Source: Thermoproteus sp.
GTDB lineage: Archaea > Thermoproteota > Thermoprotei > Thermoproteales > Thermoproteaceae
Direction of reading: 5' to 3'
DNA: 64,000 bases
NCBI GenBank assembly: GCA_038893495.1
Contig: JAWARJ010000001.1
Span: 1,601,824 to 1,665,823, forward strand
In this document: piece after piece, positions 26,138 to 34,967 of the stretch
Layout: the number at the start of each line of letters is the position of its first letter
Position numbering within the stretch: position 1 is the stretch's first letter
Translations under genes and position numbers: made by a program
The notes under the pieces: model-generated
Seen by the model: the letters and a program-made list of their open reading frames with translations, nothing else
What the model was told of the DNA's origin: nothing
The model's database searches: none

Positions 26138-26918
26138 GTGATACTGCTCAACCTGACGATACCGCCGTTAGTCTATATATTATTGGGCCCGGCGGTATTC
26201 TCGAATTTGTCGCTTCCCGTACAGCCCTCGTCGGCAGTTGCGGCGTTTTGGGCCAACGGAACTCCAATACCCTGTTGGGTGCTTCAAGATAGGCTCTATG
26301 TGCTTCAGGACAACCTCTCGGCGTATGTGGAATATATACCTCAGTTCTCAAACACGTCAGGCGTCTATTCCCTAACAGTAGATGCGTCAGAGGGTCTCGT
26401 GTTGGTCATACCGCCTGGAATATTGGCCGATATATATCCAATAAATTATACAATAATTAATATAAATAAAACTGGATTATATGTATATATAAAATCAAAA
26501 TATGTCTCTATATCTTTTTCACCAATATCAATAACGCTTACCACCACTTTGAGGAATATAACACCATCTGCGACTAATAGCACGTCGCCATCGACGAGTA
26601 TGACAGGCGCCATGGGCCTTCTGGGCTACATCGCCATCGCCGCGTCGGCCGTAGTTATAATTGCCCTAGCCTCGTTTCTGCTCTTAAGGCAGAGGGAGAC
26701 ATGTGAGGGGCTGGGGGACACCGATAGACTGATTTTAAGGGAGTTAGAAAGCCGTGGAGGAAACGCCCCTAGGTCCGAACTGGCGCGCTCGTTGGGGTTG
26801 CCCCCCCTCCACGTTGCATAAGCACCTACACAAGCTTTCGAGGTATGGGTACGTACGGCTGATCTCCGAGGGGGGCGTCCAGAGAGTAGAATTGTTAAGG
26901 CGGTGTTCAGACGGCTAA
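26138..26918 (+). pseudogene. Membrane protein with C-terminal winged helix, interrupted by a frameshift
   Basis: The frame from GTG 26138 encodes an N-terminal hydrophobic segment, an outside region rich in Ser/Thr/Asn, a second helix (GLLGYIAIAASAVVIIALAS), and then the start of a winged helix (RLILRELESRGGNAPRSELA). It stops at TAA 26819-26821 just after a run of seven C (26811-26817). Shifting by one base restores STLHKHLHKLSRYGYVRLIS and a proper end at TAA 26916-26918. With six C the protein would be an intact membrane-linked MarR/ArsR-like regulator. Sequencing error, a recent mutation or programmed slippage are all possible. Confidence 0.65.
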
Positions 26919-26957
26919 AAACCGGTCACTAATCGCCGCTCAGCGGCATCATCACTC
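26905..26957 (-). ncRNA. Candidate box C/D guide sRNA
   Basis: On the minus strand a perfect C box GTGATGA (26949-26955) and a D box CTGA (26907-26910) are 38 bases apart, the usual inner distance. Internal boxes would be a degenerate D' GCGA and C' GTGACCG. A minus-strand TATA-like aatataag at about 26977-26984 would place the start near 26956. It overlaps the 3' ends of the convergent genes on either side. An extra CTGA five bases after the C box confuses the layout, so the call is weak. Confidence 0.35.
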
Positions 26958-27529: not shown

Positions 27530-27612
27530 ATAGACCCCGATAGAGGTGAATGCGGCCGGGGTAACCCACCACGCTCATCCCCGCCCCAGTCGGGGGCAGT
27601 CCGTGTGGCGTA
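27530..27612. other. GC-rich, potentially structured intergenic segment (candidate RNA gene)
   Basis: This 27490-27641 gap holds no convincing gene, but its centre is far more GC-rich than the flanks, as expected for a structured RNA in a hyperthermophile. CCCCG/CGGGG pairs occur at 27536-27540 with 27558-27562 and again around 27580-27595, and CCACCACG (27568-27575) can pair with CGTGTGG (27602-27608). A minus-strand TATA-like gtttatattt (27630-27639) points into it. I could not fit tRNA, SRP RNA or RNase P RNA. Strand and nature unresolved. Confidence 0.35.
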
Positions 27613-31195: not shown

Positions 31196-31665
31196 GGCGC
31201 GACGAGGCGATTGGCCTAATCATCGGCGTGGTTTCCGTAATTGTCGCGTTAATTGCGGCCGCCGCGCCCATAGAGCCGCTTCTATCCGACGAGCCTCTTC
31301 CCGAGCCGCCCCATCTCGTAATAACGAATGGCATCATCATGCCCGACCAAAATGCTGTGTGGTACTATTTTTGGAAGGTCACCGTACTCCTAGTGGTAAT
31401 ATTCTTCGCGGCATTTGTGGCGTCGTTCTTCGTGGAGGTTCGAGGCGGCGTTAGGACTTTCTTTGCGTTTTTGTCTTTCGCAACAGCCACCTTCCATTAT
31501 CTAAATCTGTTCATGATGGCTAATTCCATCACCATGTATCCTTTCTTATACGTATTACATATAAAGACAAATAATAGTGGCACGATTAATCAATATTATT
31601 TAGATATAGGCCAAATATTTATATTATATGGCGTATATAATATATGGAAATTACTTAAGGAATAA
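31192..31665 (+). CDS. Hypothetical membrane protein coupled to the site-2 protease
   Basis: A 157-residue protein with about four hydrophobic stretches (9-28, 58-80, 87-112 and a final YNIWKLL region). No family recognised. Its ATG overlaps the TGA of the protease gene, so it is probably co-translated and could be an accessory subunit. The last 40 codons are AT-rich. The 3' end overlaps the convergent TIP49 gene by 15 bases. Confidence 0.6.
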   Translation: MRRDEAIGLIIGVVSVIVALIAAAAPIEPLLSDEPLPEPPHLVITNGIIMPDQNAVWYYFWKVTVLLVVIFFAAFVASFFVEVRGGVRTFFAFLSFATATFHYLNLFMMANSITMYPFLYVLHIKTNNSGTINQYYLDIGQIFILYGVYNIWKLLKE

Positions 31666-33003
31666 CTCCTCATATTGTTTCACATACTCCACAGACTCCT
31701 TCAACGATACGAATAGGCTCTTGACGTATTCGATGTCGTCGCGGCTTATCGTCTCCCTTCCCTTCTCTCTAGCCCGGATGTAGGCCGGCACCAATAGCTG
31801 TACGGCGTATCGTAGGGAGTTCTCCACGCCTATTTTAGTCAGTAGGTCGAGCGCGTCTTCGTCGATCTTAATGCCCTCCTCGTTGGCTTTTATCTTCACT
31901 ATTTCCCGTATCTCCTTTTCTCCATACGGTCTGGTCCTAATTATGACCAATCTGTCCAACATATCTCTAGGAATGCCGTGAGGCGACTCCACGTCAGTGC
32001 CTCTTATCTTCGCCACGCCTCTATTAGTGGCCAGTATGACTATGGGAGCCATTTCGCTCTCCATAGCCCTCGACAAGAAAGCGAAAGACTCTATATCTAG
32101 GAGGTGTGCGTCGTCTATGAACAAAATCCCGGGCACTAGCTCCGCCTTGCCTTCATCTATTATCTTCTTTATGAAGTTATCCGCTTCGCGCCTCACCTCT
32201 TCCGGTATCTCTCTTGTCTCTTCCACAAAGCCGAACAACGCGGCCGTCAATAGGCCTCTCTGCCTAGCGAAAGCCACATCGACGTCGTGTAGCGTGAAGA
32301 ATCTAGTGATCTCCTTCTCCTTGTAGATGGGGCCTTTAGGTAGTTCTATTTTCCTTCTGACGCTTATGTCGTATTGCTCTCCGGACTCTCCCCTGCCCTC
32401 TACGGTGACCCTCCCGGTTTCTTCGTCTATCATAATTATGTCGCCCTCCTCCACTCCGAGCTCTATGAGCTGTACTGCTATTTCGGCCGGAACTCTTAGA
32501 GTCTTCTCCTCGTCTTTTGTCCTAAGCTTTATGGTGGCGCCTCTAGGCACTTGGACGTAGGGGTTGTAGGGATGTCTGTCGTATCTTATGTCTATGGACC
32601 TCACTTCGCCTTCATATACCTTACGCCACTCCCTCATCCTAATGCCTATGGCCCTCCTCAAGGCCCTCATGAGGAACTCCGTCTTTTTCATCTCGGCGGA
32701 GTAAATCTCGCCGGCGGATAAAGCGACGAAGGGCGTATCCTCGCTCAATTCTCTGGCTATGCCTATCGCCAACGCCGTCTTGCCGGTGCCGGGAGGCCCT
32801 ACTATTAAGACTCCCTTTCCGGCGAATTTGCCGGCCTTTATCATCTTGACGACCATATATGCCGCCTCTCTCGCCTCCACTTGGCCCACAAAGCCGTCAG
32901 CCGAGAACTCCACCTTGCCGTCCCTCACACCCAGCCCCTTTATGTGGGTATGTGCTGCAAATCTCTCAAATTTGGCTTTCACCTCTTCTATCTTAACCGT
33001 CAT
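31651..33003 (-). CDS. TIP49/RuvB-like AAA+ ATPase
   Basis: A 450-residue homologue of eukaryotic RuvBL1/RuvBL2 (TIP49). The start ATG 33003 gives MTVKIEEVKAKFERFAAHTH, followed by GLGVRDG and FVGQVEAREAA. Walker [16 protein letters not shown], an inserted OB-like domain II (about 120-250), Walker B GILFIDDAHLLDIESFAFL and sensor 1 LATNRG follow in the normal order. In eukaryotes these act in INO80/SWR1 remodelling and in snoRNP assembly (R2TP); the archaeal role is unknown. It is convergent with the protease pair. Confidence 0.9.
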   Translation of the reverse strand: MTVKIEEVKAKFERFAAHTHIKGLGVRDGKVEFSADGFVGQVEAREAAYMVVKMIKAGKFAGKGVLIVGPPGTGKTALAIGIARELSEDTPFVALSAGEIYSAEMKKTEFLMRALRRAIGIRMREWRKVYEGEVRSIDIRYDRHPYNPYVQVPRGATIKLRTKDEEKTLRVPAEIAVQLIELGVEEGDIIMIDEETGRVTVEGRGESGEQYDISVRRKIELPKGPIYKEKEITRFFTLHDVDVAFARQRGLLTAALFGFVEETREIPEEVRREADNFIKKIIDEGKAELVPGILFIDDAHLLDIESFAFLSRAMESEMAPIVILATNRGVAKIRGTDVESPHGIPRDMLDRLVIIRTRPYGEKEIREIVKIKANEEGIKIDEDALDLLTKIGVENSLRYAVQLLVPAYIRAREKGRETISRDDIEYVKSLFVSLKESVEYVKQYEELFLK

Positions 33004-33073
33004 GCCCAGATTCCCACGTGGGTTAAAAAATTTCCTCGACGTAATTGATATATTGTCGACAGTGGGATATTTC

Positions 33074-33622
33074 ATGGACCTCCGCTATTTGAAGGTCTTG
33101 CTGTTTTTGGCGATAACACAATCCCTAGCGGGCAGGCGCTATATCTCGTCTAAATTAGGCCTAGGCGAGGGCGTCGTGAGGCGGCTTTTAGAGGCGGGCA
33201 GGGAGGCGAAACATATATCTGTCAATCGCGCTGGAGTTAAGATTACAGAGGAGGGGATCAGATATCTGGCAGAGGCCATGTCCATATGTGGCTTGAAGCC
33301 GCTCGCCTATTCCAACAAGTTCGGCGAGAAGCTCTGCGGTAAGATCTGCGTGGCGTTTTCGCTCAGAAGGCCCGTCGAGAATATAGTGAAGTTTAGAGAC
33401 GAGGTAGTGCGCAGAGGCAGTTGCGGGGCCGTCGTGGCGTATATGAAGGGCGGCTTTGTCTATATACCTCTAGCAGATATGCTGTTAGAAGATCTCGACG
33501 CCGACATGGCCCAGGCGTTGAAAAAAGTATTAAAGGAGGGGGAGGTCGTAGTGATAGCATGTGGCGACAATTTCGGCCAGGCCTTGGCGCCTCTCGACGT
33601 GGTCTGCAACGTGATGATGTAA
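33074..33622 (+). CDS. Winged-helix protein with DUF4443-like C-terminal domain
   Basis: A 182-residue protein. The N-terminal 75 residues form a winged helix (AGRRYISSKLGLGEGVVRRL, then ISVNRAGVKITEEGIRYLAE). The C-terminal half has strands KICVAFSLRR and CGAVVAYMKGGFVYIPLAD, resembling archaeal DUF4443 proteins. Likely a ligand-responsive regulator; targets unknown. ATG 33074 is used; the long upstream frame is antisense to TIP49. The last codons overlap the box C/D RNA candidate at 33608. Confidence 0.65.
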   Translation: MDLRYLKVLLFLAITQSLAGRRYISSKLGLGEGVVRRLLEAGREAKHISVNRAGVKITEEGIRYLAEAMSICGLKPLAYSNKFGEKLCGKICVAFSLRRPVENIVKFRDEVVRRGSCGAVVAYMKGGFVYIPLADMLLEDLDADMAQALKKVLKEGEVVVIACGDNFGQALAPLDVVCNVMM

Positions 33623-33662
33623 CCCGGACTGATCGATGAAGTTCGGCATCCTATCTGAAGAC
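33608..33662 (+). ncRNA. Box C/D guide sRNA candidate overlapping a gene 3' end
   Basis: All four boxes are present in order: C GTGATGA (33611-33617), 11-base guide, D' CTGA (33629-33632), C' TCGATGA (33633-33639), 15-base guide, D CTGA (33655-33658). C, D' and D are perfect and C' differs by one base from TTGATGA. The C box overlaps the stop-codon region of the winged-helix gene, an arrangement known for Pyrobaculum sRNAs. No TATA is visible 25 bases upstream, so it may be processed from the mRNA. Targets not identified. Confidence 0.55.
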
Positions 33663-33734: not shown

Positions 33735-34967
33735 ATGAGCGAACAAACTGTATCTATCAGGACAACAGGCAAGATAATTCAATCTCCCTGCGGCCCCATA
33801 ATCCATGGACTTGAAGACGTTTTGGTCAAAATAACTACAATAAGCGATATAGACGGACAGACAGGTCGGTTGTGGTATAGAGGCTATAGGATAGAGGACC
33901 TAGCCAACAACTCGACCTACGAGGAGGTGGTGTACCTCCTCCTATATGGCAGGTTGCCCAATAGACAAGAGCTTGAGGGTTTGAAGAAGAGGCTGGCATC
34001 TAACAGAGACCTAAATCCCGCCACTGTGGAGGTGATACGCGCATTAGCCAAGGCGCACCCAATGTTCGCATTGGAGGCCGCGGTGGCTTCAGAGGGCGCA
34101 TACGACGAGGACAATATCAAGCTCGCGGAGGCGTTAAAGGCAGGGCGTTATAAACAGGAGGAGAAAGACTTGGCGCTGAGAATAGCCGAGAAGCTCGTGG
34201 CTAAGTTGCCGACTATTGTGGCTTATCACTATAGGTTCTCTAGGGGCCTAGAGGCCGTGAGGCCCAGATCCGACCTATCACATTCTGCAAACTTCCTGTA
34301 TATGTTCTTCGGCAAGGAGCCAGACCCGCTGGCCACTAGAGCCATAGACCTCTACTTAATACTCCACGCAGACCACGAGATACCTGCCTCTACATTCACC
34401 GCATTAGTCATAAGCGCTACGTTAAGCGACCTCTACTCGGTAGTCGCCGGCGCTATAGGCGCGCTCAAAGGCCCTCTACACGGTGGAGCCAACGAGGCCG
34501 CTGTGAAGGCATATCTAGAAATCGGAGACCCCGCTAAGACAAAAGAGCTGGTAGAAGCCGCGACGAAGCCCGGCGGACCTAGGCTCATGGGAGTAGGCCA
34601 TAGGGTCTACAAGGCATATGACCCACGCGCTAAGATCTTCAAGAAGCTGGTGGAGGACTATACCGCCAAATTCGGAGACCCGCAGAAGCTCTATGCAATA
34701 GCCAGCGGCATTGAGCAGGCCGTGTTGTCGCATCCCTACTTCCAGCAGAGGAAGCTATATCCCAATGTAGACTTCTGGTCTGGCATAGTGTTCTACTACA
34801 TGGGCATACCGTATGACTACTTCACCCCGCTGTTCGCCATGTCTAGAGTGGTCGGATGGACCGCCCACGTGCTTGAATATTGGGAGAATAATAGGCTGTT
34901 CAGACCGAGGGCATGTTATGTAGGACCTCACGACCAACAATATATACCATTAGAATCAAGAACTTAA
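33735..34967 (+). CDS. gltA: Citrate synthase (2-methylcitrate synthase activity possible)
   Basis: A 410-residue citrate synthase condensing oxaloacetate with acetyl-CoA (or propionyl-CoA). The catalytic triad is in place: His249 in GPLHGGAN, His289 in MGVGHRVYK and Asp346 in NVDFWSG; LILHADHE is at 208-215. Short archaeal type, with about 20 extra N-terminal residues (starts ATG 33735). With prpB/prpD at 20-22.5 kb it could also feed the methylcitrate cycle. A weak TATA-like gcttatgag lies about 25 bases upstream. Confidence 0.93.
   Translation: MSEQTVSIRTTGKIIQSPCGPIIHGLEDVLVKITTISDIDGQTGRLWYRGYRIEDLANNSTYEEVVYLLLYGRLPNRQELEGLKKRLASNRDLNPATVEVIRALAKAHPMFALEAAVASEGAYDEDNIKLAEALKAGRYKQEEKDLALRIAEKLVAKLPTIVAYHYRFSRGLEAVRPRSDLSHSANFLYMFFGKEPDPLATRAIDLYLILHADHEIPASTFTALVISATLSDLYSVVAGAIGALKGPLHGGANEAAVKAYLEIGDPAKTKELVEAATKPGGPRLMGVGHRVYKAYDPRAKIFKKLVEDYTAKFGDPQKLYAIASGIEQAVLSHPYFQQRKLYPNVDFWSGIVFYYMGIPYDYFTPLFAMSRVVGWTAHVLEYWENNRLFRPRACYVGPHDQQYIPLESRT

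What the first reader, a model, noticed from the sequence alone, without database searches (positions are those of the whole stretch)
33608..33662. Four-box C/D sRNA overlapping the 3' end of a winged-helix gene
C, D' and D are perfect and C' near perfect, in order and with guide-sized gaps, while the C box lies on the stop codon region of the regulator gene. Such 3' overlaps are reported for Pyrobaculum sRNAs. With no promoter visible, the RNA may be cut from the mRNA and so tie regulator expression to sRNA supply.
Basis: partly seen in the sequence, partly recalled or inferred. Interest (0 to 1): 0.55.

Follow-up and report, generated by a model that had tools for sequence, protein, structure and literature searches.

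The report
C/D guide RNA for proline tRNA
A hot-spring archaeon carries a small guide RNA, overlapping the end of a regulator gene, that most likely directs a methyl mark onto one proline transfer RNA; it is a real and conserved gene of a well-known kind.

Summary
Window 33611-33658 (+) is a box C/D sRNA gene. C, D' and D are perfect, and the RTGA half of C' is present. The box layout occurs once in 64 kb and in 0 of 100 shuffles. Comparison across species moves C' to 33636-33642 and makes the D guide 12 nt.

A model of the RNA finds it in 5 of 6 same-genus (Thermoproteus) genomes, 11 of 11 Pyrobaculum genomes and, more weakly, in other Thermoproteales. In 15 of those 16 genomes it lies next to the same winged-helix gene. 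Boxes and D guide stay fixed while that gene's stop slides from 97 nt before the C box to 50 nt past it, so the RNA is the conserved element.

The D guide's best partner is the D arm of tRNA-Pro(GGG): 10 consecutive Watson-Crick pairs in 13 of 14 genomes, 9 in the other. The best 23S site gives at most 8. The N+5 rule puts the methyl on G23.

The proposed link to regulator expression is not supported: such overlap is known and common, and Pyrobaculum copies have a TATA-like element. New member of a known kind, modest interest.

The parts
33611..33658 (+). box C/D sRNA gene, core (mature ends unknown, perhaps 2-6 nt beyond on each side)
33611..33617 (+). C box GTGATGA
   Evidence: RTGATGA in all 30 parsed relatives
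33618..33628 (+). D' guide TGTAACCCGGA; core AACCCG kept in 15 of 16 Thermoproteus/Pyrobaculum genomes (AGCCCG in G017); matches the tRNA T-arm CCGGGTT(C), target uncertain
33629..33632 (+). D' box CTGA (degenerate, usually NNGA, in relatives)
33636..33642 (+). C' box ATGAAGT (RTGA half conserved)
33643..33654 (+). D guide TCGGCATCCTAT, 12 nt; pairs with the D arm of tRNA-Pro(GGG), N+5 on G23
33655..33658 (+). D box CTGA
33074..33622 (+). host gene: winged-helix/DUF4443 protein, 182 aa, stop TAA 33620-33622 inside the sRNA
33735..34967 (+). downstream citrate synthase gene (context, conserved synteny)

Best explanation
This is a box C/D sRNA gene. Its RNA would bind L7Ae, Nop5 and fibrillarin at the C/D and C'/D' motifs. 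Its D guide (TCGGCATCCTAT) would base-pair with positions 19-30 of tRNA-Pro(GGG), that is the D-loop end, the 3' strand of the D stem and the 5' strand of the anticodon stem, and direct 2'-O-methylation of G23 by the N+5 rule. In Thermoproteus it has no TATA element of its own and is most likely cut from the winged-helix mRNA; in Pyrobaculum it probably has its own promoter. Shown here: the boxes, their conservation, the guide-tRNA complementarity, the sliding stop codon and the TATA contrast. Inferred: the RNP, the methylation and its site, and the processing from mRNA. The D' guide probably contacts tRNA T arms or has no target.
For: Box layout unique in the window, 0 of 100 shuffles. Model R1, built from nine copies that match by construction, matches 34 of 45 genomes of the order: Thermoproteus-type genus 5 of 6 (the miss is 73% complete and lacks the winged-helix gene too), Pyrobaculum-type 11 of 11. 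D guide: the best partner in the 36 tRNA loci found in this genome is tRNA-Pro(GGG), with 12 pairs of which 2 are G-U. Shuffled guides do as well against tRNA plus rRNA in 25 of 3000, and random window 12-mers in 124 of 3000. TAGGATGCCG occurs in 1 of 36 tRNA loci here and in 1 of 43 in the P. aerophilum-like genome, the orthologous tRNA each time. Ten consecutive Watson-Crick pairs in 13 of 14 genomes where that tRNA was found, nine in the other (the G002 value after splicing by eye). The 23S alternative gives at most 8 pairs, always with a mismatch at guide position 2, only 7 Watson-Crick plus a G-U here, and is broken in G015, whose guide-tRNA duplex is the best of all.
Against: No transcript or modification data were available. 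The 14 genomes are not independent, because both guide and tRNA are conserved. The single-genome probability against random window 12-mers is only about 0.04-0.06. No 2'-O-methyl at tRNA position 23 appeared in the passages I read, and I recall none. A 23S site with 8 Watson-Crick pairs also exists in 10 of 12 Thermoproteaceae genomes, so the guide could serve rRNA as well. In the other family (Vulcanisaeta-like g6) the guide of G038 fits tRNA-Val(GAC) better than tRNA-Pro(GGG). tRNA-Pro(GGG) was not found by pattern in 2 of 16 genomes (G010, G017). The tRNA sets are probably incomplete.
Confidence: 0.68

Rival explanations
1. The D guide's true target is 23S rRNA, at the GAAAGGATGC site (position 580 of the 23S here), with N+5 on the second G; the tRNA match is incidental.
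For: 8 consecutive Watson-Crick pairs (guide positions 3-10) in 10 of 12 Thermoproteaceae genomes aligned; most assigned guides in Pyrobaculum target rRNA (56%, PMC7994747 passages).
Against: Mismatch at guide position 2 in every genome; only 7 Watson-Crick plus one G-U in this genome; site destroyed in G015 while the guide is kept. Fails the nine-pair rule quoted from PMC4644070 (passages), which tRNA-Pro(GGG) meets.
Confidence: 0.2
2. The sRNA is a double guide on one molecule: the D guide on the D arm and the D' guide on the T arm of tRNA-Pro(GGG), acting as a folding chaperone and/or a two-site methylation guide.
For: The D' core GAACCCGG of many Pyrobaculum copies is the exact complement of T-arm 49-56 (10 of 11 guide positions pair in the P. 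aerophilum-like genome). It is conserved where the RNA is intergenic, so not through coding.
Against: The same T-arm sequence is in 21 of 36 and 26 of 43 tRNA loci, so it is not specific. In this genome the D' match is no better than chance (954 of 3000 shuffles, tRNA only). The N+5 base shifts between 52 and 53 among genomes. The D' box is degenerate in Pyrobaculum.
Confidence: 0.15
3. The sRNA and the winged-helix mRNA are a regulatory unit: cutting out the sRNA lowers or times regulator expression.
For: No TATA-like element before the sRNA in 5 of 5 Thermoproteus genomes, so it probably rides on the mRNA; cutting would remove the stop codon from the message.
Against: Overlap not conserved; a review reports neutral or slightly negative effects of 3' overlaps in a reporter (PMC7994747 passages).
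Confidence: 0.08
4. Chance box matches in coding DNA; no RNA is made.
For: None beyond the lack of transcript data.
Confidence: 0.02

Closest known systems
Archaeal box C/D sRNAs of Pyrobaculum (110 families, Lui et al. 2018, NAR; not held, known to me through PMC7994747 passages and recall)
   Same: Box order, guide lengths, size, genomic setting at a gene's 3' end, tRNA-directed guides as a known minority (16%). The Pyrobaculum orthologues found here are very likely already in that catalogue.
   Different: I could not check whether this family is listed, nor which target it was given.
tRNA-targeting archaeal C/D guides (sR50/tRNA-Trp intron Cm34 and Um39; the Cm56 and Gm18 guides)
   Same: Proposed 2'-O-methylation of a tRNA by the fibrillarin RNP.
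   Different: Predicted site G23 in the D stem of one isoacceptor, outside the anticodon, Gm18 and Cm56 sites that I saw described.
Rfam sR5, sR51, sR9, sR47 C/D families
   Same: Box pattern gives weak matches (14-20 bits).
   Different: All below the gathering score; guides differ.

Membership tests
archaeal box C/D sRNA | C box RUGAUGA and D box CUGA | tested here: met
archaeal box C/D sRNA | internal D' (CUGA) and C' boxes with a short spacer | tested here: met
   D' perfect, C' RTGA half only, 3-nt spacer
archaeal box C/D sRNA | guides of about 10-12 nt next to D and D' | tested here: met
   11 and 12 nt
archaeal box C/D sRNA | conserved as RNA across relatives independent of the reading frame | tested here: met
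archaeal box C/D sRNA | at least nine consecutive Watson-Crick pairs to a stable RNA spanning N+5 | tested here: met
   10 pairs to tRNA-Pro(GGG); not met for 23S (7-8)
archaeal box C/D sRNA | expressed RNA bound by L7Ae, Nop5 and fibrillarin | not testable with these tools
   no expression or binding data
double-guide sRNA (both guides on one molecule) | second guide with specific complementarity nearby | tested here: inconclusive
   T-arm match better in Pyrobaculum, at chance level here
Rfam sR5 and other listed C/D families | score at or above gathering | tested here: not met
   20 bits against 40

The most novel reading that the evidence does not exclude
A C/D sRNA whose two guides both address the same tRNA, tRNA-Pro(GGG) (D arm through the anticodon stem, and the T arm), marking D-stem G23 and acting as a fold-checking chaperone. 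In T. tenax the D-arm intron sits directly before the N+5 base, so the mark could only be laid efficiently after splicing.
Probability: 0.15. Interest if true: 0.5.

Novelty: new member of a known kind. Interest (0 to 1): 0.3.

Why it matters
It adds an annotated, conserved guide RNA with a testable tRNA target in a genome where Rfam sees nothing at this place. It also gives a clean natural series in which one sRNA goes from sitting behind its own TATA-like element (Pyrobaculum) to being embedded in the 3' end of a protein gene with no visible promoter (Thermoproteus). If the tRNA-Pro(GGG) G23 methyl is real, it would be a modification site I have not seen described.

Tried and rejected
Rfam families: none at gathering score at this place. 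Stable fold of the free RNA: none, z = -0.47, as expected for a C/D sRNA. Sigma-70-type promoter/terminator scan: nothing above chance, and it does not suit archaea.

16S as target of either guide: no conserved site as good as the tRNA or 23S ones. The SSU set was 7 genomes, and its flanks ran into the 23S. 23S as target: considered seriously, ranked second.

D' guide at Cm56: rejected because the N+5 base would be 52 or 53, and position 56 is unpaired in three Thermoproteus genomes, this one included. The D' register in the two 10-nt cases (G002, G003) is my reading.

First alignment A1 mixed strands and was discarded. The first parsing script found only 2 of 9 loci because of a pattern error and was redone. 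ARAGORN anticodon calls for intron-containing tRNAs are unreliable: it called L036 Pro(tgg) and L184 Ser(gga). I read both as tRNA-Pro(GGG) from the anticodon stem and loop, and from the UGG and CGG isoacceptors being other loci here (read by eye).

Naming by protein search of genome contigs: one search found nothing, one search found 5 loci.

Papers: Lui 2018 and Bernick 2012 are not held. For the rest I saw search listings and passages only. Searches looked for a tRNA-Pro guide and for Gm23: no Gm23 occurrence in the 8 papers listed of 330.

Full report
WHAT IS THERE. Window 33611-33658 (+) reads C box GTGATGA, an 11-nt guide, D' CTGA, 3 nt, C' ATGAAGT, a 12-nt guide TCGGCATCCTAT, D CTGA. 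A pattern of this layout occurs once in the window with no mismatch and in none of 100 dinucleotide shuffles. With looser spacing it is again alone with a strict D' box, and 60 simulated windows gave none. No Rfam family reaches its gathering score at this place.

WHERE IT LIES. It overlaps the last codons and the stop (TAA 33620-33622) of a 182-aa winged-helix protein with a DUF4443 domain, 76 nt upstream of a citrate synthase gene. The protein alignment shows the conserved part ending at an invariant Cys (codon 33606-33608), just before the C box.

CONSERVATION. A DNA search of 41 genomes found the locus in other same-genus genomes, and a 48-49-nt match covering just the sRNA in three Pyrobaculum-type genomes. 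A sequence-only model from nine copies, which match it by construction, then matched 34 of 45 genomes of the order at E <= 0.01. By group: same genus 5 of 6; Pyrobaculum-type genus g3 11 of 11; g2 0 of 2; g4 0 of 5; g5 1 of 1 (weak); g6 11 of 12 (two weak); g7 1 of 3 (weak); g8 5 of 5 (weak). The one same-genus miss, G001, is 73% complete and also lacks the winged-helix gene. Names: g1 is Thermoproteus and g3 Pyrobaculum, because contigs of G003 and G013 have the lengths of named records (Thermoproteus sp. AZ2, Pyrobaculum sp. WP30). T. tenax (G002), T. uzoniensis (G004), P. islandicum (G010), P. aerophilum (G012) and Vulcanisaeta (g6) are recalled, mostly from genome lengths.

RNA, NOT PROTEIN, IS CONSERVED. 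In the five Thermoproteus genomes the gene's stop ends 12, 12, 30, 47 and 48 nt after the C box start; in two the stop is the UGA of the D box. In Pyrobaculum the winged-helix stop lies from 97 nt before the C box to 50 nt past it, G013 apart. In G013 (Pyrobaculum sp. WP30) the intact gene lies about 2.4 kb away with a TIP49 gene between. Only a 57-nt stretch resembling the gene's 3' end (81% identity) remains beside the sRNA, which is intact. Of 14 distant winged-helix homologues examined, none has four boxes near its stop.

TARGET. The D guide was compared with the 36 tRNA loci that RF00005 finds in this genome, 43 in G012 and 45 in G038, and with their rRNAs. The best tRNA partner here is tRNA-Pro(GGG), 12 pairs with two G-U. 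In G012 it is the orthologous tRNA, 11 pairs. In G038 it is tRNA-Val(GAC), 12 pairs with two G-U (anticodons read by me). Shuffled guides match as well against tRNA plus rRNA in 25, 68 and 14 of 3000; random window 12-mers in 124, 186 and 177 of 3000. Across the 16 Thermoproteus/Pyrobaculum genomes with the sRNA, tRNA-Pro(GGG) was located in 14 (not in G010 and G017): 13 have ten consecutive Watson-Crick pairs at guide positions 2-11, and G009 has nine. G002 is counted after removing a D-arm intron that sits directly before the N+5 base. The best 23S site has 8 Watson-Crick pairs in 10 of 12 genomes of this family aligned, always with a mismatch at guide position 2, 7 plus a G-U here, and is broken in G015. 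In G015 the guide's first base is changed and pairs with its tRNA, giving 11 Watson-Crick pairs. By the N+5 rule (stated in PMC4644070, passages) the methylated base would be G23.

D' GUIDE. The AACCCG core is kept in 15 of 16 Thermoproteus/Pyrobaculum copies and complements the T arm (CCGGGTT, in 21 of 36 and 26 of 43 tRNA loci). In this genome the match is at chance level (954 of 3000 shuffles, tRNA only); in G012 it is somewhat better (71 of 3000). A review says that tRNA-directed Pyrobaculum sRNAs use one guide while the other has no target (PMC7994747, passages), and that may be the case here.

BIOGENESIS. A loose TATA-like consensus of my own scores 3-5 of 8 upstream of the sRNA in 5 of 5 Thermoproteus genomes. 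In Pyrobaculum it scores 8 of 8 in 4 of 11, 7 of 8 in 5 and 6 of 8 in 2, lying 26-35 nt before the C box. A score of 8 turns up in 1-2% of random stretches of the same locus, but a score of 7 in 8-25%, so only four genomes are convincing one by one. In G013 and G015 the element is within sequence coding for, or left over from, the gene's last codons. So Pyrobaculum copies probably have a promoter and Thermoproteus copies probably depend on the mRNA. The review gives 25% of archaeal C/D genes with 3' overlap and neutral or slightly negative reporter effects, which speaks against a regulatory tie.

VERDICT. A real, conserved, ordinary C/D guide RNA gene with a good but untested tRNA target. The Pyrobaculum orthologues are probably in the catalogue of Lui et al. 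2018, which I could not read.

Noticed in passing
31651-33075 (-): A TIP49/RuvBL-like AAA+ ATPase gene (PF06068) is divergent from the winged-helix gene; the order TIP49, winged-helix, sRNA, citrate synthase recurs in Pyrobaculum-type loci. TIP49 helps assemble C/D snoRNPs in eukaryotes (recalled), so the closeness to a C/D gene is curious, but may be chance.
   Followed up: partly
33074-33622 (+): The winged-helix protein has six Cys invariant over 10 aligned homologues (C72, C88, C92, C117, C163, C178), suggesting a metal or redox sensor.
   Followed up: no
26906-26955 (-): A second four-box C/D-like candidate with a degenerate D' box.
   Followed up: no
27551-27612 (-): Rfam PyrR205 H/ACA-like sRNA, above gathering score.
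   Followed up: no
L309 (T. tenax-like G002): tRNA-Pro(GGG) carries an apparent intron in the D arm exactly before the predicted N+5 base, interrupting the guide's target.
   Followed up: partly
L313 (Pyrobaculum sp. WP30): TIP49 and an intact winged-helix gene are rearranged relative to the sRNA; a 57-nt stretch like the winged-helix 3' end with a TATA-like CTTAAATG stays beside the sRNA.
   Followed up: partly
L145 54-1268 (-): An ORF that looks like an IS605-type TnpB (by eye) follows the sRNA in G016 where citrate synthase stands in other genomes.
   Followed up: no
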